The position numbers and the translations under genes were made by a program. This document shows positions 53,681 to 62,036 of a stretch of DNA of 64,000 nucleotides, piece by piece. This DNA is from Variovorax paradoxus (GTDB lineage: Bacteria > Pseudomonadota > Gammaproteobacteria > Burkholderiales > Burkholderiaceae_C): positions 1,674,001 through 1,738,000 of the forward strand of contig CP063166.1 in NCBI GenBank assembly GCA_016806145.1, read 5' to 3'. Numbering within the stretch: the stretch's first letter is position 1; the number at the start of each line of letters is the position of its first letter. The notes below the pieces were generated by a model that made no database searches, had not been told where the DNA came from, and saw only the letters and a program-made list of their open reading frames with translations.

Positions 53681-54358
53681 ATGAAGAGCTCTCCCGGAGC
53701 CCGCAGCTGGATCGCCGCCGGCGTGCGCCATGAACTCCTGACCCGTGCCTTGCCCGCGCTGCGCCACGACATGGCGGCGCCGGTGTCGGTGATCCGCATG
53801 GCGCTGCTCATGCTCAAGCGCCAGCTTGCCGCTGAAACCATCGATCGTGCCGTCAGCGAGGAACGCATGGGCCTGGTCGATGGCCAGGTGTCCGAACTGG
53901 TCGAAGGCATCCGCTCGTTGCGCGACTGGGAACTGGCGACTACCGACGACGGCATCACGCGCGCCGCGCTCGTGGCGCGCTGCGTCGCGCTGATGCGCGC
54001 CGCCTTCGACCTGCATGGCGTGTCGCTCGAGGTGGACGATGCGCTCGGCGCCGGCGAGGATGACAAGCGCTGGCCCGCGGCGGCCGCGCTGCGCTATCTG
54101 TTCCTCGGCGCGCTCGGCTACCTGCACGACGGCGCGCCGGAAGCCGGCGCGATCCGCATCGAGGCCGACGGTGCCGAAGGCCTGCGCTTCGCGGCGCTGC
54201 CGCGCGAGGCCAGTGCCGCCAATCCGGTGCTCGACGCGCACCGCGCGCCGCGCGCGCTGGCCATCGACGCCATCGCGCTGCAGAGCCTGGCCGAAGACCT
54301 CGGCTACCGCATCGCGCTCGAGCGCGACAGCGTGCGCTTCTCGCTCGGCGCGGGCTGA
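53681..54358 (+). CDS. Degenerate histidine-kinase-like protein
   Basis: 225 aa, not clearly assignable. Residues 27-38 read LRHDMAAPVSVI, a good match to the H-box of sensor kinases (H29-D-x3-P34), followed by an amphipathic helix pair ending near residue 85. The second half (ALRYLFLGALGYLHDGAPEA, IRIEADGAEGLRF) resembles the start of a kinase ATPase domain, but the Asn of the N-box and all glycine boxes are absent. No sensor or membrane segment. The frame is open upstream to 53498, but that part is low complexity. The last 55 bp overlap the convergent topoisomerase gene. Confidence 0.6.
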   Translation: MKSSPGARSWIAAGVRHELLTRALPALRHDMAAPVSVIRMALLMLKRQLAAETIDRAVSEERMGLVDGQVSELVEGIRSLRDWELATTDDGITRAALVARCVALMRAAFDLHGVSLEVDDALGAGEDDKRWPAAAALRYLFLGALGYLHDGAPEAGAIRIEADGAEGLRFAALPREASAANPVLDAHRAPRALAIDAIALQSLAEDLGYRIALERDSVRFSLGAG

Positions 54359-55608
54359 ACACGCGGCCGCGCGGGAGCGGCCTTGCGCACGGCCAGCGGC
54401 GCGTGCTTCGATTTTTCCGACGATGTCGTCGGGCCCGATACGGGCTTCGCGCTCTTGCGCTGCCGCGTCGCGGCCTGCAGTTCGCGCCGATGCGCCTGCA
54501 AAAAATCCAGCAAACGCCGCTCCGCCGCATGCAGCCCGCGCGAGGGTCGCGCGCTGCGGCGCCCCGCGATGCGTTCGAGCAGGGCCGACGCCGCATCGGC
54601 CTCGGTGCTCGCGAGCGCGCTGCCCAGCGACAGCACCGCGGGATGCACATAGGCCTTCTTGCAGACCGCGGGCGTGTTGCCGAGCTGGCGCGCCACGGTC
54701 GCGAGGATGTCCTTCGCGGTGTAGCGGCTGCCGTCCGAGGCGACCCGGCCCGGCTCGCAGGCCAGCCGCGTGAGCTCGAGCGCCTGCACCGTGCCGTGCC
54801 AGGTGCGGAAGTCCTTGGCGGTGAAGCGCTCGCCCTCCAGGCCCTTCTGGCCCTCGACCACCTCGCCGAGGTAGTCGTTGACGTCGGTCGACGAGACGCT
54901 GTGCGGCTCGCCGTCCTCGCCCACGTACTGGAACAGCGCCTGTCCCGGCAACTGCTGGCAGCCGCGCACGATCTTCGCCACGCGCGGGTCCTCGAGCGTG
55001 GCCTCGTGCATCACGCCGCTCTTGCCGCGGAAGCGCAGCTGCAGCGCCGCGCCCTTTACCGCCGCATGCCGGTTGCGCAGCGTCGTGAGGCCGTAGGAAC
55101 CGTTGCTGCTCGCGTACTCCTCGTTGCCCACGCGCATCAGCGTGGTGTCGAGCAGCCGCACCAGCGCGGCCAGCACCTGCGCCCGGGCCGGCGCGCCCGT
55201 GACCTTGCCGGCCTGCAGGTCGCGCTGCACCCGCGCGCGGATGCGCGGCAGCGCGCGCGCGAAAGCCTCGAGCCGGTCGAACTTGGTCTCGTCCTTCAGC
55301 GCGCGCCAGTCGGCGTGGTAGCGGTACTGCTTGCGGCCGCGCGCATCGAGGCCGGTGGCCTGCAGGTGGCCGTTGGGCAGCGGGCAGATCCACACGTCGT
55401 CGTAGGCCGGCGGTATCGCCAGCATGCGGATGCGCGAGAGCTCGTCCACGTCGCGCACCCACTGGCCGCGCGCGTCGCGGTAGCGGAACTTCGCGCCGTG
55501 CCGCAGGCGCCGGATGCCCGGCATGTCGGGGTTCACGTAGACCAGCCCGTTCGCAATCGGCGTGGGCTTGGACGGAGGCCGTCTCGCGGAGGATGCTGTG
55601 TCCGGCAT
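54304..55608 (-). CDS. DNA topoisomerase IB
   Basis: 434 aa poxvirus/bacterial type IB enzyme relaxing supercoils through a 3'-phosphotyrosine. N-terminal domain with RYRDARGQWVRD and AIPPAYDDVWICP; catalytic part with RVGNEEYASSNGSYGLTTL, the lysine in RFRGKSGVMHEA, the FRTWHGT arginine and histidine, and the nucleophile in CKKAYVHP (Tyr near residue 318). The C-terminus has about 50 extra basic residues after the family core. ATG at 55606-55608 is preferred; the frame remains open upstream. Confidence 0.92.
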   Translation of the reverse strand: MPDTASSARRPPSKPTPIANGLVYVNPDMPGIRRLRHGAKFRYRDARGQWVRDVDELSRIRMLAIPPAYDDVWICPLPNGHLQATGLDARGRKQYRYHADWRALKDETKFDRLEAFARALPRIRARVQRDLQAGKVTGAPARAQVLAALVRLLDTTLMRVGNEEYASSNGSYGLTTLRNRHAAVKGAALQLRFRGKSGVMHEATLEDPRVAKIVRGCQQLPGQALFQYVGEDGEPHSVSSTDVNDYLGEVVEGQKGLEGERFTAKDFRTWHGTVQALELTRLACEPGRVASDGSRYTAKDILATVARQLGNTPAVCKKAYVHPAVLSLGSALASTEADAASALLERIAGRRSARPSRGLHAAERRLLDFLQAHRRELQAATRQRKSAKPVSGPTTSSEKSKHAPLAVRKAAPARPRVQPAPSEKRTLSRSSAMR

Positions 55609-55741
55609 GGTGGTTGCGTGGTGTAGACAAGCCTGTTGTGCCAGCGCCGACAATGCGCGGCTGTAGGACGCCGCGAGCGCCGCCGGTGCGATGGCCGCGC
55701 TTGCGTGTCCTGCCCTCATCCTCGAATCCACGGAGTCCCCC

Positions 55742-56794
55742 ATGCCGTCTTCCTCCTCCCTGTGCTTCGCCCGACTCTCGGCACTGGCCGCCGCCGTGCT
55801 GCTGGCCGGTGCCGCCAGCGCCGCCACCATGCCGCCCGCGCCCGGCGCCGAAGCCCGCGCCGAACTGCCTGTGAAGGTGAAGGTGTTCGTCGCCGCCATG
55901 TTCGAGATCGGCCAGAACACCGGCGACCGCGCGGGCGAGTTTCAGCACTGGTACGAGCGCTACTGGAAGGGCGCGAAGCCGATGGCCGTGCCCGGTGCGC
56001 TGCAGCCCGTCTACTGCAATGCCGACGGCGTCTGCGGCGCGGTGCTCGGCATGGGCAAGGTCAATTCCTCGGCCTCGATGCAGGCGATCCTCTTGAACCC
56101 GCAGTTCGATTTCTCGCAGGCCTACTACGTGATCTCGGGCGTGGCCGGCACGCCGCCCTCGCGCGGCACTATCGGCGAGGTGAGCTGGGCCACCTGGCTG
56201 GTCGACTACGACCTCGGCCACCGCTGGGCGCCCGAGGAGAACCAGCCCGGCGAGCCCACATTCATGCCGCGCAAGGGCTATGAGTCGTACCGCCGCTTCA
56301 AGCTCAACCCCGAGCTCGTCGGCTGGGCCATGAAGCTCACGGCCGACACGCCGCTCAAGGATTCGGAATCGGCGCGCGGCTACCGGCTGCGCTATCCCGA
56401 TGCCGCGGCGCGCCGCGCGCCCTTCGTCGGCACCGGCACCCACATGACGGGCGACACCTTCTTCCACGGCCCCGGCATGTCGAACCAGGCGCAGTACATC
56501 GCGAAGCTCTATGGCGCCGACGACTACGTGATCACCGAGATGGAAGCCGCCGCGATCACGCTCGTGATCCAGCGCACCCACGGCACCGACCGCGTGATGA
56601 GCCTGCGCGGCGCGGTCAACTTCGACCAGGGCAATCCCAACGAGACCACCTTGCAGCACCTCGACCCCGCGCCCGGCGAAACGGCCGGCGGCTTCGCCGA
56701 GACGGCGGAGAACATCGCGCTGGTGGGCACGCGCGTGGTCGACCACATCGTGGCGAACTGGGGGCAGTGGCAGGGCGGCGTGCCGCGGCCCTGA
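55742..56794 (+). CDS. Purine nucleoside permease (NUP) family protein
   Basis: 350 aa. Signal peptide (LAAAVLLAGAASA, cleavage near residue 28), so it is exported. The mature part KVKVFVAAMFEIGQNTGDRAGEFQ, VISGVAGTPPSRGTIGEV and TEMEAAAITLVIQR fits the NUP family, which resembles nucleoside phosphorylases in fold. Despite the family name it has no membrane helices, so a periplasmic nucleoside-binding or phosphorylase-like role is more likely than transport. Confidence 0.82.
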   Translation: MPSSSSLCFARLSALAAAVLLAGAASAATMPPAPGAEARAELPVKVKVFVAAMFEIGQNTGDRAGEFQHWYERYWKGAKPMAVPGALQPVYCNADGVCGAVLGMGKVNSSASMQAILLNPQFDFSQAYYVISGVAGTPPSRGTIGEVSWATWLVDYDLGHRWAPEENQPGEPTFMPRKGYESYRRFKLNPELVGWAMKLTADTPLKDSESARGYRLRYPDAAARRAPFVGTGTHMTGDTFFHGPGMSNQAQYIAKLYGADDYVITEMEAAAITLVIQRTHGTDRVMSLRGAVNFDQGNPNETTLQHLDPAPGETAGGFAETAENIALVGTRVVDHIVANWGQWQGGVPRP

Positions 56795-57502: not shown

Positions 57503-58747
57503 TCAGAACAGCGAGGCCGTGGCCGACTCGGGCGCGGTGGCCGGGCGCTGCGTGCCGCCGGCCGGTGCCAGCGCCTCGGGGCTGCCCGCGCGCGCCAGTG
57601 CGCCCACGCGCACGCCCAAGAGGCGCAGCGGCCGTTCGAGCGGCACGCGCTTCAGGCACAGGCCGCCGGTGCGGCGGATGGTCTTCGCGTCGTCGGTGAA
57701 GCGGTCGATGGTCTGGTCGCGCGTGGCGATCTTGAAGTCGTCGTAGCGCAGCTTGATGCCGATGGTCTTGCCCACGTAGCCCTTGCGCCGCAGGTCCTCG
57801 GCGACCTTCTCGCACAGCCGCGTGAAGATCTCGCCGAGTTCCGCGCGGTCGCGCACCGCATGCAGGTCGCGCTCGAAGGTGGTCTCGCGGCTCATCGAGA
57901 CCGGCTCGCTCTCGGTCACCACCGGGCGGTCGTCGCGGCCCCACGCCACCTCGTGCATCCAGACGCCGGTGGACTTGCCGAAGTTGTCGATCAGCCAGCC
58001 GCGCTCGCAGGCCGCGAGCTGGCCGATGGTCTCGATGCCCAGGCGCTTGAGCTTCTCGTCGGCCTTGGGCCCGATGCCGTTGACCTTGCGGCAGGGCAGC
58101 GGCCAGATGCGGGTCTCGATGTCGTCCTGGTAGACCACCGAGATGCCGTTGGGCTTGTCGAATTCGCTCGCCATCTTGGCGATCAGCTTGTTGGGCGCCA
58201 CGCCGATCGAGCAGGTCAGGCCGGTGGCCTGGAAGATCGATTTCTGGATCAGCCGCGCCAGCGTGCGCCCGCCCTCGCGCTGGCCGCCGGGCACCTCGGT
58301 GAAGTCGATGTAGACCTCGTCCACGCCGCGGTCCTCCATCAGCGGCGCGATGTCGGTGATGATCGACTTGAAGCCGCGCGAGTACTTGCGGATCTCCTCG
58401 AAGTCCACCGGCAGCAGGATCGCCTGCGGGCACAGCTTGGCGGCCTTCATGAGCCCCATGGCCGAGCCCACGCCGAACTGCCGCGCCGGGTAGGTGGCGG
58501 TGGTGATCACGCCGCGACCCACGTAGTCCTTGAGCCGCGCGAAGGCATCGACCGGAATGTCGGCCAGCGTGCCGCCGGGCGGCAGGCGGCTGATGGCTTC
58601 GTCCACGCTGCGCCGGCCGCCGCCGATCACCACCGGCAGTCCCTTGAGCTGCGGATAGCGCAGCAGCTCGACCGACGCGTAGAAGGCGTCCATGTCGAGG
58701 TGGGCGATGCGGCGGATCGGGGGGGTGGCGGCGGGCTTGGAACTCAC
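57503..58747 (-). CDS. dinB: DNA polymerase IV (Y-family)
   Basis: 414 aa translesion polymerase. HLDMDAFYASVE (first metal Asp) is near residue 17 and DRGVDEVYIDFTEV (the DE pair) near residue 108. Helix-hairpin-helix CRKVNGIGPKADEKLKRLGI and the little-finger domain follow. The C-terminus TASLF resembles a weak beta-clamp peptide. The GTG start gives a 17-residue lead before the first motif and is the only good start there. Insert YSRGFKSIITDIAPLMED is normal for the family. Confidence 0.93.
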   Translation of the reverse strand: MSSKPAATPPIRRIAHLDMDAFYASVELLRYPQLKGLPVVIGGGRRSVDEAISRLPPGGTLADIPVDAFARLKDYVGRGVITTATYPARQFGVGSAMGLMKAAKLCPQAILLPVDFEEIRKYSRGFKSIITDIAPLMEDRGVDEVYIDFTEVPGGQREGGRTLARLIQKSIFQATGLTCSIGVAPNKLIAKMASEFDKPNGISVVYQDDIETRIWPLPCRKVNGIGPKADEKLKRLGIETIGQLAACERGWLIDNFGKSTGVWMHEVAWGRDDRPVVTESEPVSMSRETTFERDLHAVRDRAELGEIFTRLCEKVAEDLRRKGYVGKTIGIKLRYDDFKIATRDQTIDRFTDDAKTIRRTGGLCLKRVPLERPLRLLGVRVGALARAGSPEALAPAGGTQRPATAPESATASLF

Positions 58748-58865
58748 GGTAACGATTGTCTCGCGCTGCGCCGATGTTCGCCCGGGCCGGCGCAGCGTGC
58801 AAGAATGCATCGGAATCTCAAGCCCCCACGAGGGCCATGAACACGTTCTAGGAAAGGAATGCGCC

Positions 58866-59714
58866 ATGGGTGACGACGAGGAAGGCGGCCTCTCGGTCGC
58901 GCTGACGCCGGTGCAGCTGGCGGCGGTGCTCGGTGGCGAGGACGTGCCCGAGTCGGCGAGCCTCAGCAACCGGCTCTGGGGCACCGCGGCGCTGGTCGGC
59001 GGCGTGCTCGAGCTGGTCGGCGCGGGCGTGCTGTGCGTCGCGCCCGAGCCCACCATGGCGAGCAAGGTCGGCTGCGTGGTGCTCGGCGCCCACGGCAGCG
59101 ACGTCACCGCCACCGCCGCGCGCCAGGTCTGGACCGGCCGCTCGCAGCGCACCGCCACCTCCATGACGGCCGATGCCGCCGCGCAGGCCATGGGCGCCTC
59201 GCCCGAGACCGGCGCGCAGGTGGGACTCGCGGTCGATGTCGCGGTGCCGCTGTTCGTGGCCGGCGGCCTCGCCGCATCGCGCGTCATCGCGGTGCGCGCG
59301 AGCCGCTTCAAGCTCGAACCCGTGCGCCTCATCGAGCACGAGGGCGTGGCCGGCTCCAAGGCCGGCGGCCACACCATCCGCGAACACGTCGGCAAGTCGG
59401 CGCAGGACCTGTTCGGCCGCTTCGCGAAGAAGCCCAGCCTGCAGAAGTCGTCGTCCTTCTTCGACCTCGCCACCGCCGAGTCGGCCATCAGCCAGACGGT
59501 GCGCGCCAATGCGCGCGCGATCCGCGCCTGGTCGCGCTCGGCGCAGGTGGGCTCCAAGCCCATGGCGTTCGAGCACGACATCGGCACCGTGGTCGGCATC
59601 GGCGTGCAGCGCGGCAGCACGGCCGTGAGCCAGCTCACCAAGGTGCGCGTGACGCTCAACATGCGCGCCTACAACGGCAAGCCCTTCTACATCCTCACCG
59701 CCCATCCGTTCTGA
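58866..59714 (+). CDS. Polymorphic toxin with RNase A-like C-terminal domain
   Basis: 282 aa. Residues 1-150 form a small export/pretoxin part with two glycine-rich hydrophobic segments (about 37-60 and 117-143). From about 160 the sequence fits the bacterial RNase A-like CDI toxin domain: GGHTIREHVGKS, R185, SSSFFDLATAESAI, AIRAWSR, and the terminal FYILTAHP. H174, R185, T278 and H280 have the spacing of the catalytic residues recalled for the Yersinia kristensenii toxin, with His in place of the last Tyr. No Sec signal, VgrG, PAAR or CdiB gene nearby. Ribosome site GGAAAGGA 7 nt upstream. The next gene is the likely antidote. Confidence 0.82.
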   Translation: MGDDEEGGLSVALTPVQLAAVLGGEDVPESASLSNRLWGTAALVGGVLELVGAGVLCVAPEPTMASKVGCVVLGAHGSDVTATAARQVWTGRSQRTATSMTADAAAQAMGASPETGAQVGLAVDVAVPLFVAGGLAASRVIAVRASRFKLEPVRLIEHEGVAGSKAGGHTIREHVGKSAQDLFGRFAKKPSLQKSSSFFDLATAESAISQTVRANARAIRAWSRSAQVGSKPMAFEHDIGTVVGIGVQRGSTAVSQLTKVRVTLNMRAYNGKPFYILTAHPF

Positions 59715-59737
59715 CAGTCAGCACAACAAGACCCACG

Positions 59738-60016
59738 ATGCGATTCGAACTGATCGACCACTTGACCAAGGTCTATTTCGGCCAGGATGCCGACATCCTC
59801 TTCGGCGAGACCGGCGCCGAGATCATGGCCTCGTACCGCGAATCGAGCACCCCGGCCGAACTGGCCGCGCTGCGTGCCGAGATCGCCGACTACCGGGGCT
59901 CGCACGACGACGTCGAGGCCGCGTTCGCGCGCGACTTCGAGCGCGACTACCTGCCCGAGGATTTCGGCCGCACGGCGGCGGAGTTCTTCGACCGCGTGCT
60001 GGCGGCGGTGCAGTAG
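59738..60016 (+). CDS. Probable CdiI-type immunity protein
   Basis: 92 aa, acidic, helical: DHLTKVYFGQDADILFG at the start and TAAEFFDRVLAAV at the end fit the CdiI_2-like immunity family. It starts 23 nt after the toxin gene in the same direction, the usual toxin-immunity order. It would bind and block the RNase A-like domain in the producer's cytoplasm. The gene ends 15 nt before the convergent TRAP gene, without a visible terminator. Confidence 0.75.
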   Translation: MRFELIDHLTKVYFGQDADILFGETGAEIMASYRESSTPAELAALRAEIADYRGSHDDVEAAFARDFERDYLPEDFGRTAAEFFDRVLAAVQ

Positions 60017-60031
60017 CACCCGCGGCTTCGC

Positions 60032-61546
60032 TCAGGGCGATTCGGTCGCGGGCACGCCGTCGGCCGGGTCGGGCGGCGGGGCCATCTCGCGCATCAGGCG
60101 GTCGGCCGCCTCGGGGTCCATCGGCGCCTGCCCGGGTGCCGCCGTCTCGGGCGCGTCGCGCAGCCAGTGCGTGCTGACGGGCCAGGCCATCGCCGCGGCC
60201 AGCACCAGCGCGAGCAGCGCGAGATAGGGCGCCAGCGCGAGCGCCACCGCGCGCAGCGGCGGGCGCGGCACGGTCTGCCCGCGCGCGAGCACGAGCGCAT
60301 AGCCGAAGGGCGGCAGCAGGAAGCCGGCCTGCAGCACCAGCAGCGCGAGCGTCGCGATCCAGGCCGCATCGGGGAGCTGCGCGAGCACCGGCGGCATCAC
60401 GATCGGCACCACCAGGAAGATCAGCTCGAAGGCATCGAGCACGAAGGCGCAGGCCAGCAGGATGGCGAGCACCGCGCCCAGGCCGAGCATCGGATGGCCC
60501 TGCAGCGCGAGCATCAGCCGCATGACCAGCGCATCGGTGCCGAAGCCGCGCAGCAGCAGCGAGAAGGTGGTGGCCGCGACCAGCAGCGCATAGAGCGCGC
60601 CGGTCAGCGCCATCGCGTCGTCGAGCACCTGGCGCAGCAGCTCCGCGCGCAGCATCTGGCCCGAGACCAGTCCCCAGCCCAGCAGCAGCATGCAGGCGGT
60701 GGCGGCGCCTTCGACCGGCCGCACGCGGCCGAGCGCGATCAGCACCAGCAGCGAGCCGATCACGGGCGGCACGATCGACAGTGTCCAGCGCTGCGCGCGC
60801 GTGAGCGGCTCGCGCGTGGCGGGCGTGGCCGGCACGGCGGGGCGAGCGCGGCGCGCGCTCCAGGCGGCGATCGCGAGCCAGCCGACGAACAGCGCCGCGG
60901 CCGGCAGCAGCGCGGCCTGCAGGATGTCCTGCGTGTTGACGATGCGTTCGGCCGCGGCGCCCGGCAGGCCCAGGCCGCGCGCCATGTTCACGCCCTCGGT
61001 GTGGGCACGCAGCATCGCGTCGGCGAGCAGCAGCAGGACCAGCGAGGGCGGCACGATCACGCCGAGCGTGCCGGTCACCGCCACCAGCGCCGTGCGGCGC
61101 GGGGCCGACAGTCCTTCGCGCGCCCAGCTCTCGCCCGCGGTGCGCGCCAGCGTGAGCAGGCTCGCGCCGACCGAGCCGTTCATCGGCGCCAGCAACAGGC
61201 CGAGCGCCATGCCCGCGATCTCGGCCGCCGCGCGCGGCGCGATGCGCGCGAGCAGGCGGCGCAGGCCCTCGTACAGGTGCTGCGCGAGCGCGAGCCGGTT
61301 GAGCAGCGCGCCCACCAGTGCATAGAGCGCGAGCGCCTGCAGCAGGTCGTGCTCGAGCAGGCCGACGATGCGCCACGGCAGGTTCTGCAGCAGCGCCATG
61401 TCGAAGGCGCCGAGCGCGAGGCCCGCCACCGCGCCGAGCGTGGACACGCCGAGCAGCACCGCGTAGGTGGGCCAGCCCGTGCTCATCATCAGCGCGAGCG
61501 CCACCGCGAGCAGCGCGAGACCGAGCCAGCCGCTGCCGGCGCTCAT
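60032..61546 (-). CDS. TRAP transporter large permease (DctM-type)
   Basis: 504 aa with about 12-13 membrane helices and a hydrophilic C-terminal tail (PMDPEAADRLMREMAPPPD). LAPMNGSVGASLLTLART, VTGTLGVIVPPSLVLLLLAD (the PPS motif) and LACAFVLDAFELIFLVVPIV are DctM features; the DAFELIF form is seen in the subgroup importing mannitol/chloroaromatic- or keto-acid-type compounds. The start overlaps the end of the small permease reading frame by 4 nt (ATGA). No binding protein (DctP) is visible downstream. Confidence 0.9.
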   Translation of the reverse strand: MSAGSGWLGLALLAVALALMMSTGWPTYAVLLGVSTLGAVAGLALGAFDMALLQNLPWRIVGLLEHDLLQALALYALVGALLNRLALAQHLYEGLRRLLARIAPRAAAEIAGMALGLLLAPMNGSVGASLLTLARTAGESWAREGLSAPRRTALVAVTGTLGVIVPPSLVLLLLADAMLRAHTEGVNMARGLGLPGAAAERIVNTQDILQAALLPAAALFVGWLAIAAWSARRARPAVPATPATREPLTRAQRWTLSIVPPVIGSLLVLIALGRVRPVEGAATACMLLLGWGLVSGQMLRAELLRQVLDDAMALTGALYALLVAATTFSLLLRGFGTDALVMRLMLALQGHPMLGLGAVLAILLACAFVLDAFELIFLVVPIVMPPVLAQLPDAAWIATLALLVLQAGFLLPPFGYALVLARGQTVPRPPLRAVALALAPYLALLALVLAAAMAWPVSTHWLRDAPETAAPGQAPMDPEAADRLMREMAPPPDPADGVPATESP

Positions 61547-62036
61547 CGCGCGCGCCTCCAAGGCCAGGCCTGCCAGAGCTCGAGCGCCGCCTGCAGCGCG
61601 AGCAGCACGGCGAGCAGCAGCAGCGCGATCTTGACCATGAAGTAGCCCGCGTTGAAGGTGTCGGGAAAGCGCTCGAGCGCCGCCACCGAGCCCAGCACCG
61701 GCCGCGCCGACACGGCCACCAGGAACAGCGCCCACGGCAGCACGCACAGCGCGGCACCGGCGCGGCGCCAGCGCGCGGGGCTGCCCGCGGCGAGGTCGGG
61801 CCGCGCCACCAGGTGCGCGCCGCGCCGCCCGCGTGCCGCAGCGCCACCGCCACGTAGAGCGCGAACAGCCACTGCGCGAGGTCGTTGGCCTGCGTCGGTC
61901 CGAAGCCGGCCCCGGCGAGATCGCGCAGCGGCCACTGCAGGAACAGCAGCAGCGCGATCGCCAGCGCCAGCGGCATCGCCAGCCAGTCGAGGCGGTCGAG
62001 CAGACGGGTGGCGAGGCAGGCGTCGGGCGGCGTCAT
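61543..62036 (-). pseudogene. TRAP transporter small permease (DctQ-type), frameshifted
   Basis: The first ~72 codons (from MTPPDACLATRLLDRLDWLA, with helices LALAIALLLF and QWLFALYVAVAL) are in one frame. The rest (GAHLVARPDLAAGSPARW, LPWALFLVAVSA, FMVKIALLLLAVLLAL) continues in another. The switch lies in a GC run at about 61817-61838 and needs one missing base. Joined, the product is a normal ~164-aa DctQ with four helices. Either a true inactivating deletion or a sequencing error. Confidence 0.82.

What the first reader, a model, noticed from the sequence alone, without database searches (positions are those of the whole stretch)
58866..60016. Orphan RNase A-like polymorphic toxin with adjacent immunity gene
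The 282-aa protein joins a short hydrophobic N-terminal module to a C-terminal domain with the bacterial RNase A-like (CdiA-CT) pattern. H174 and R185 are 11 residues apart, and T278 is followed two residues later by H280. This is the spacing I recall for the catalytic residues of the Yersinia kristensenii CDI toxin, but with His replacing Tyr at the last position. A 92-aa CdiI-like gene follows 23 nt later. No VgrG, PAAR, Hcp or CdiB gene is in the window, so how it is delivered is open. An 850-bp toxin of this size with its own two membrane segments may be a free-standing T6SS cargo or an intracellular defence toxin.
Basis: partly seen in the sequence, partly recalled or inferred. Interest (0 to 1): 0.75.

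Follow-up and report, generated by a model that had tools for sequence, protein, structure and literature searches.

The report
Orphan type VI RNase A toxin
This soil-bacterium gene pair most likely encodes an RNA-cutting toxin fired into rival bacteria by the type VI secretion machine, with its antidote; relatives show that its killing half is swapped between strains while its membrane-loving front half stays much the same.

Summary
P0001 (58866-59714, 282 aa) ends in an RNase A-like toxin domain (PF18431, 5e-35; PDB 5e3e). The next gene (59738-60016) is CdiI_2 immunity (7e-19). The catalytic positions align as claimed: H174, R185 and T278 are invariant in the 30 family members aligned. Position 280 is His, Tyr or Phe (14/9/7).

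All 22 toxin-bearing Variovorax (of 91 searched) have TssC, but their toxin genes are orphans beside dinB.

The N-terminal module is a remote relative of DUF4225, a T6SS effector domain that lyses cells from the periplasm.

In Variovorax the C-terminal half is exchanged behind a conserved N-terminus: His/Tyr changes number 5 on the dinB tree, 1 on the C-terminal tree. The eight Tyr-type genomes have no CdiI_2 match; an unknown convergent gene follows their toxin. Two genomes keep the immunity gene without an intact toxin.

Verdict: a real toxin-immunity pair, a new variant of a known kind. Toxicity, secretion and binding are untested.

The parts
58866..59714 (+). Toxin gene, 282 aa: N-terminal DUF4225-like hydrophobic module (about residues 16-135) plus C-terminal RNase A-like domain (residues 168-281)
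   Evidence: Pfam RNAse_A_bac 5.4e-35; PDB 5e3e_B 3e-11; Foldseek 5e3e_B 2e-7; N-module vs DUF4225 profile-profile probability 92%
58866..59291 (+). N-terminal module (residues 1-142), conserved while the C-terminal half is exchanged; hydrophobic stretches at residues 39-57 and 117-135
   Evidence: alignment A1, hydropathy, trees
59367..59708 (+). RNase A-like toxin domain (residues 168-281); H174 (59385-59387), R185 (59418-59420), T278 (59697-59699), H280 (59703-59705)
   Evidence: H174, R185 and T278 invariant in 30 of 30, position 280 H14/Y9/F7
59738..60016 (+). Immunity gene, 92 aa, CdiI_2 family
   Evidence: Pfam CdiI_2 6.6e-19; 5e3e_A 6.7e-4
57503..58753 (-). dinB-like DNA polymerase IV gene (name by sequence, no family scan), the constant left neighbour of the cassette in 22 of 22 Variovorax loci
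60032..61747 (-). TRAP transporter large-subunit-like gene (name by sequence, no family scan; start not refined), one of the genes that follow dinB in toxin-less genomes

Best explanation
The two genes are a T6SS cargo effector and its immunity protein. The 282-aa effector is carried by a type VI apparatus, plausibly inside or on Hcp, into a neighbouring bacterium. Its hydrophobic DUF4225-like N-terminal module serves loading and/or passage of the inner membrane. Its RNase A-like C-terminal domain then cuts RNA, with H174 as base, R185 stabilising, and T278/H280 at the place of RNase A's second histidine. The 92-aa CdiI_2 protein blocks that active site in kin. The cassette sits as an orphan island between dinB and a transporter region, and strains diversify it by exchanging the C-terminal half, with or without a CdiI_2 gene. 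Shown here: families, catalytic alignment, T6SS linkage in relatives, C-terminal exchange, orphan immunity genes. Inferred: secretion, RNA cleavage, immunity, and the role of the N-module.
For: PF18431 and CdiI_2 over cut-off; all four active-site positions align to 5e3e. TssC in 22 of 22 toxin-bearing against 49 of 69 other Variovorax (hypergeometric p = 0.0018, not corrected for relatedness). G000 itself has 3 TssC, 5 Hcp and 10 VgrG matches. All 9 intact non-Variovorax copies that I looked at are followed by a CdiI-type gene: 4 by Pfam (L035, L037, L146, L147), 4 by the record's annotation (L036, L039, L041, L185), 1 by similarity alone (G194). C-terminal exchange: His/Tyr label changes 5 on the dinB, 3 on the N-module and 1 on the C-terminal tree (FastTree, midpoint root, no support values used); L028 against L030 is 94-100% identical in DNA through most of dinB (from 6750) and the N-module, 56-68% in the C-terminal half. 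Orphan CdiI_2 at the dinB site in G037 and G047.
Against: No experiment. All 22 Variovorax copies lie beside dinB; in G000 the nearest VgrG is about 68 kb away. The Pantoea, G194 and G898 copies have no T6SS gene in the stretches seen (the print for G898 was cut in part). The T6SS-linked copies are three records from two lineages. The Hcp of R. tumorigenes and G1065 matches only 2 of the 4 G000 Hcp tested, at about 20% identity. Pfam found no T6SS marker domain in the protein itself. The second hydrophobic stretch is weak in the T6SS-linked copies: one stretch over 1.6 in R. tumorigenes and G1065, two in the window and Pantoea proteins. The T6SS co-occurrence is not phylogenetically corrected.
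Confidence: 0.75

Rival explanations
1. The effector carries two activities: the DUF4225-like module itself damages the envelope from the periplasm, and the RNase domain is a second warhead.
For: The N-module is related to DUF4225 by profile-profile comparison (probability 92%; 30 decoys at most 0.3%, 8 control families at most 0.7%). A DUF4225 protein encoded next to hcp lyses E. coli from the periplasm (PMC9765294, passages).
Against: The DUF4225 effector studied has a separate immunity protein with three predicted transmembrane helices; in G1065 the toxin is followed by a CdiI_2 gene and then vgrG, with hcp directly in front, and the R. tumorigenes CdiI has no hydrophobic stretch. Identity to DUF4225 is 12%.
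Confidence: 0.2
2. Intracellular toxin-antitoxin or anti-phage defence module that is never secreted.
For: Two-gene cassette in an orphan position in Variovorax.
Against: No PADLOC match for either protein; no match in the phage collection; linkage to hcp and vgrG in relatives; orphan immunity genes and repeated C-terminal exchange.
Confidence: 0.1
3. CDI (CdiA/CdiB) toxin fragment or orphan CdiA-CT module.
For: Toxin and immunity domains are those of the Y. kristensenii CDI pair.
Confidence: 0.03
4. In the Tyr-type loci, which lack CdiI_2, the convergent 233-aa gene ('conv') is an alternative immunity protein and stays behind as orphan immunity in His-type loci.
For: It lies about 20-30 nt behind the toxin stop in 8 of 8 Tyr-type loci, and occurs at the dinB site in 18 of 22 toxin loci (one a remnant) but in 0 of 40 toxin-less dinB loci read. 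The Tyr-type C-terminal domain is under strong purifying selection (median pairwise dN/dS 0.05) although no CdiI_2 match was found in any of the 8 genomes.
Against: No Pfam or NCBIfam family, PDB sequence or fold match (the fold model is of low confidence); opposite strand; the conv tree is not congruent with the His/Tyr split (4 changes); conv is in two pieces in Tyr-type G004; a Tyr-type toxin in G1065 has CdiI_2 instead; remote paralogues (30-32%) lie elsewhere in 8 genomes, and in the 6 read no toxin is among the neighbouring reading frames printed.
Confidence: 0.35

Closest known systems
CdiA-CT/CdiI of Yersinia kristensenii (PDB 5e3e; PF18431 / CdiI_2)
   Same: Toxin domain and immunity family; H, R and T catalytic positions
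   Different: Not on a CdiA; a short N-terminal module instead; His replaces Tyr at the last active-site position in this genome
DUF4225 T6SS effectors on hcp modules (V. parahaemolyticus, PMC9765294, passages read)
   Same: N-module remotely homologous (probability 92%); hcp lies one gene away or directly in front in the T6SS-linked relatives
   Different: The DUF4225 effector studied is lytic in the periplasm and has transmembrane immunity; here the module is fused in front of an RNase domain with CdiI_2 immunity
Ribocin RbcN of P. aeruginosa (PMC13189344, passages read) and MafB2-CT of Neisseria (PMC9970974, passages read)
   Same: Bacterial RNase A-fold nucleases; Ribocin needs the equivalent H, T and Y
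   Different: Much more divergent sequences (RbcN 15% identical to CdiA-CT of Y. kristensenii, as that paper states); other delivery and targets
T6SS nuclease effectors of Serratia with a 'CdiA-CT' domain (PMC12165300, one passage read)
   Same: A CdiA-CT-type nuclease domain listed among T6SS effectors
   Different: The passage does not say which CdiA-CT family is meant; not compared here

Membership tests
RNase A-like bacterial toxin domain (PF18431) | Match over the curated score | tested here: met
   121.1 bits vs cut-off 27
RNase A-like bacterial toxin domain (PF18431) | Active-site His, Arg, Thr, Tyr | tested here: inconclusive
   H174, R185, T278 present and invariant in 30 of 30; the Tyr position is His here, Tyr or Phe in relatives
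RNase A-like bacterial toxin domain (PF18431) | RNA cleavage | not testable with these tools
   needs an assay
CdiI_2 immunity protein (PF18593) | Match over the curated score, next to the toxin gene | tested here: met
   68.9 bits vs 26.7; start 23 nt behind the toxin stop
CdiI_2 immunity protein (PF18593) | Neutralises the cognate toxin | not testable with these tools
   needs co-expression
CDI system | CdiA with secretion and repeat regions | tested here: not met
   282-aa protein, only RNAse_A_bac found
CDI system | CdiB transporter gene | not tested
   no search made
T6SS cargo effector | Gene linked to T6SS genes | tested here: inconclusive
   met for homologues in 3 records; not met for the Variovorax copies, which are orphans
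T6SS cargo effector | Host carries a T6SS | tested here: met
   TssC in 22 of 22 toxin-bearing Variovorax
T6SS cargo effector | T6SS-dependent secretion and killing | not testable with these tools
   needs competition assays
DUF4225 (PF13988) | Match to the Pfam model | tested here: not met
   no hit at E <= 1; only profile-profile similarity, so a relative, not a member

The most novel reading that the evidence does not exclude
A DUF4225-derived membrane module, lytic when it is the toxin, has been turned into a built-in carrier: T6SS leaves the effector in the periplasm and the module takes the fused RNase across the inner membrane. Behind this conserved carrier, strains exchange RNase A-type warheads, including a His form with a two-histidine active site as in vertebrate RNase A and a Tyr form protected by an immunity protein of a new kind (conv).
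Probability: 0.25. Interest if true: 0.78.

Novelty: new variant of a known kind. Interest (0 to 1): 0.52.

Why it matters
[quoted passage not shown] The Variovorax dinB site is a natural experiment: one conserved N-terminus, repeatedly exchanged C-termini, orphan immunity genes, and eight genomes that keep a conserved toxin without its usual immunity gene. The natural His/Tyr/Phe variation at the second active-site position allows a direct comparison of catalytic solutions.

Tried and rejected
Structure prediction gave low confidence (toxin pLDDT 48, conv 55.5). Only the 5e3e match of the toxin is usable; the conv fold search gave nothing at E <= 0.001. LexA control of the toxin from the dinB intergenic region was considered and not supported: of the 22 intergenic regions, 4 hold a site with two mismatches to CTGT-N8-ACAG and none a better one (motif recalled). 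Conv as a partner travelling with the Tyr C-terminus: not clearly so. Conv paralogues elsewhere gave no toxin context in the 6 of 8 read. Searches for the toxin in phages were empty. DUF4225 in a 140-genome sample of the class found nothing, control genomes included, so it was repeated around G1036 (25 of 109 genomes). The two other CdiI_2 genes of the genus (G025, G039) gave no obvious toxin partner by eye. The N-module had no PDB sequence relative. Batot et al. 2017, the primary 5e3e paper, is not held; its residues are taken from review passages.

Degraded copies: Pantoea records L038 and L040 hold broken relatives; they were described from the annotation only and left out of the 9 intact copies and of the 30-member alignment. 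The second intact copy of Pantoea plasmid pPag2 (L185) is not in the 30-member alignment either. Of the 12 plasmid records, 7 were opened.

Full report
What is there. The window holds a 282-aa gene (58866-59714 +) and, 23 nt behind it, a 92-aa gene (59738-60016 +). Pfam finds RNAse_A_bac over residues 168-281 of the first (5.4e-35) and CdiI_2 over the second (6.6e-19), both far over the curated cut-offs. Sequence comparison with the PDB returns the Y. kristensenii CdiA-CT/CdiI pair 5e3e for both (3e-11 and 6.7e-4). The predicted model is poor overall (mean pLDDT 48), but its only fold matches at E <= 0.001 are two chains of 5e3e (best 2e-7).

Catalytic variation. In the 30 family members aligned (22 Variovorax, 3 Pantoea, 2 R. 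tumorigenes, G194, G898, G1065) H174, R185 and T278 are invariant; position 280 is His in 14 (all Variovorax), Tyr in 9 and Phe in 7. The wider PF18431 family was not counted. A MafB2 paper places Thr276/Tyr278 of the Yersinia toxin at RNase A's His119 (PMC9970974, passages). The window protein therefore probably carries a histidine at or next to the second-histidine place of RNase A; this is inference. Ribocin needs the equivalent H, T and Y (PMC13189344, passages).

Distribution in Variovorax. Full-length relatives occur in 22 of 91 genus genomes searched, plus a 37-aa remnant in G037; none of the 59 other genomes of that search has one. The seven title-bearing copies are all Variovorax. All 22 lie beside dinB. 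Of dinB loci without the toxin I read 40 (34 of the 69 toxin-less genomes, and 6 of 9 genus genomes not searched with the toxin). In 36 of 40 dinB is followed by an nlpC-like, TRAP or 'duf' gene (names by sequence), genes that also flank the cassette. Two of these 36 (G037, G047) keep a CdiI_2 gene in between, without the toxin.

Exchange of the C-terminal half. Fourteen genomes have the His type with CdiI_2 directly behind; eight have the Tyr type. On trees from dinB, from the N-module and from the C-terminal half, the His/Tyr label changes 5, 3 and 1 times (FastTree, midpoint root, support not used). Loci L028 (His) and L030 (Tyr) are 94-100% identical in DNA through most of dinB (from 6750) and the N-module, 56-68% in the C-terminal half. 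This is the cassette exchange known for polymorphic toxins, at a fixed site. Second CdiI_2 genes follow further down in G017 and G024.

Tyr type without CdiI_2. The CdiI_2 search found no match in any of the eight Tyr-type genomes, yet their C-terminal domain is strongly conserved (median pairwise dN/dS 0.05, against 0.26 for the His type). Behind them, about 20-30 nt from the toxin stop and on the opposite strand, lies a 233-aa gene ('conv') of no known family. It sits at the dinB site in 18 of 22 toxin loci (one a remnant), in 0 of 40 toxin-less dinB loci read, in 0 of 300 genomes of an order sample and in no plasmid record. The window, L002, L003 and L006 lack it. Eight other Variovorax carry 30-32% paralogues elsewhere (6 read). 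Conv as alternative immunity is a hypothesis; that conv is in two pieces in Tyr-type G004 and that its tree does not follow the His/Tyr split (4 changes) speak against it. In G1065 a Tyr-type toxin does have CdiI_2, so Tyr as such does not require another immunity.

Delivery. It is rare: the N-module profile found 2 of 369 genomes of the class sample and 5 of 397 of the phylum sample, own genome included. In R. tumorigenes the order is tssB-tssA | tssH-hcp-198 aa-toxin-CdiI-vgrG. In G1065 it is tssC-tssA | tssH-hcp-toxin-CdiI_2-vgrG-DUF2169-Tox-PAAR-like/Ntox15, with Hcp, toxin, CdiI_2, VgrG and the last two confirmed by Pfam (TssC, TssA and TssH there named by sequence). In Pantoea, G194 and G898 no T6SS gene was seen nearby (the print for G898 was cut in part). 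All 22 toxin-bearing Variovorax have TssC against 49 of 69 others (p = 0.0018 without correction for relatedness). G000 has 3 TssC, 10 VgrG and 5 Hcp matches, the nearest VgrG about 68 kb away. The Hcp of the T6SS-linked relatives matches only 2 of 4 tested G000 Hcp, at about 20%, so which Hcp would carry the toxin is open.

The N-terminal module. The profile search also found, weakly (1.7e-5), a protein of G1036 that Pfam calls DUF4225. Profile-profile comparison of 11 N-modules with 24 DUF4225 proteins gives probability 92% over 108 columns (score 48.7). Thirty shuffled or reversed decoys score at most 14.0. Eight natural control families reach at most 0.7% probability. Half-sets give 94% and 50%, and Variovorax-only N-modules 90%. 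DUF4225 was shown, for one protein encoded beside hcp, to be an antibacterial T6SS effector lytic from the periplasm (PMC9765294, passages). The module is thus related to a known T6SS effector domain, not a member by the Pfam test.

Literature. Searches for 'RNase A-like' or 'RNase A superfamily' together with T6SS returned 1 and 5 papers; none of their titles names a T6SS RNase A effector, and I read passages of two of the six, PMC9086364 and PMC3482391. One Serratia survey lists 'CdiA-CT' among nuclease domains of T6SS effectors without saying which CdiA-CT family (PMC12165300, one passage), so CdiA-CT-type nucleases in T6SS effectors are not new as such. PF18431 and PF18593 are in no held paper. 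A paper on tumorigenes-clade Ti plasmids has no 'T6SS', 'effector' or 'immunity' in its text, though it uses 'type VI' 37 times (listing; those places not read). The primary 5e3e paper is not held. The library holds open-licence papers only, so novelty in print is not proven.

Verdict. The finding is real and correctly read. It is a polymorphic toxin-immunity pair, most likely a T6SS cargo effector, with an N-module and an exchange pattern that make it a new variant of a known kind.

Noticed in passing
L029 8862-9560 (-) and 17 further toxin loci: A convergent 233-aa gene of no known family was found at the dinB site only together with the toxin (0 of 40 toxin-less sites read); remote paralogues sit in another Variovorax locus with IclR- and TctC-like neighbours (by eye).
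   Followed up: partly
L072 470-745, L082 473-748: Orphan CdiI_2 immunity genes directly beside dinB in two Variovorax genomes (G047, G037) without the toxin there; G037 also has a 37-aa toxin remnant elsewhere (L023, L103).
   Followed up: yes
L037 8859-9521: The R. tumorigenes immunity protein is 220 aa and looks like two CdiI_2 modules in tandem (by eye; Pfam matched residues 7-91 only).
   Followed up: no
L035 12492-13754; L039 9175-10437: Pantoea plasmid copies lie a few kb from umuC, while the Variovorax copies lie beside dinB: two error-prone polymerases near the same toxin family, perhaps coincidence.
   Followed up: no
window 54304-55920 (-): The reading frame looks like a bacterial type IB DNA topoisomerase (by eye, no family scan).
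   Followed up: no
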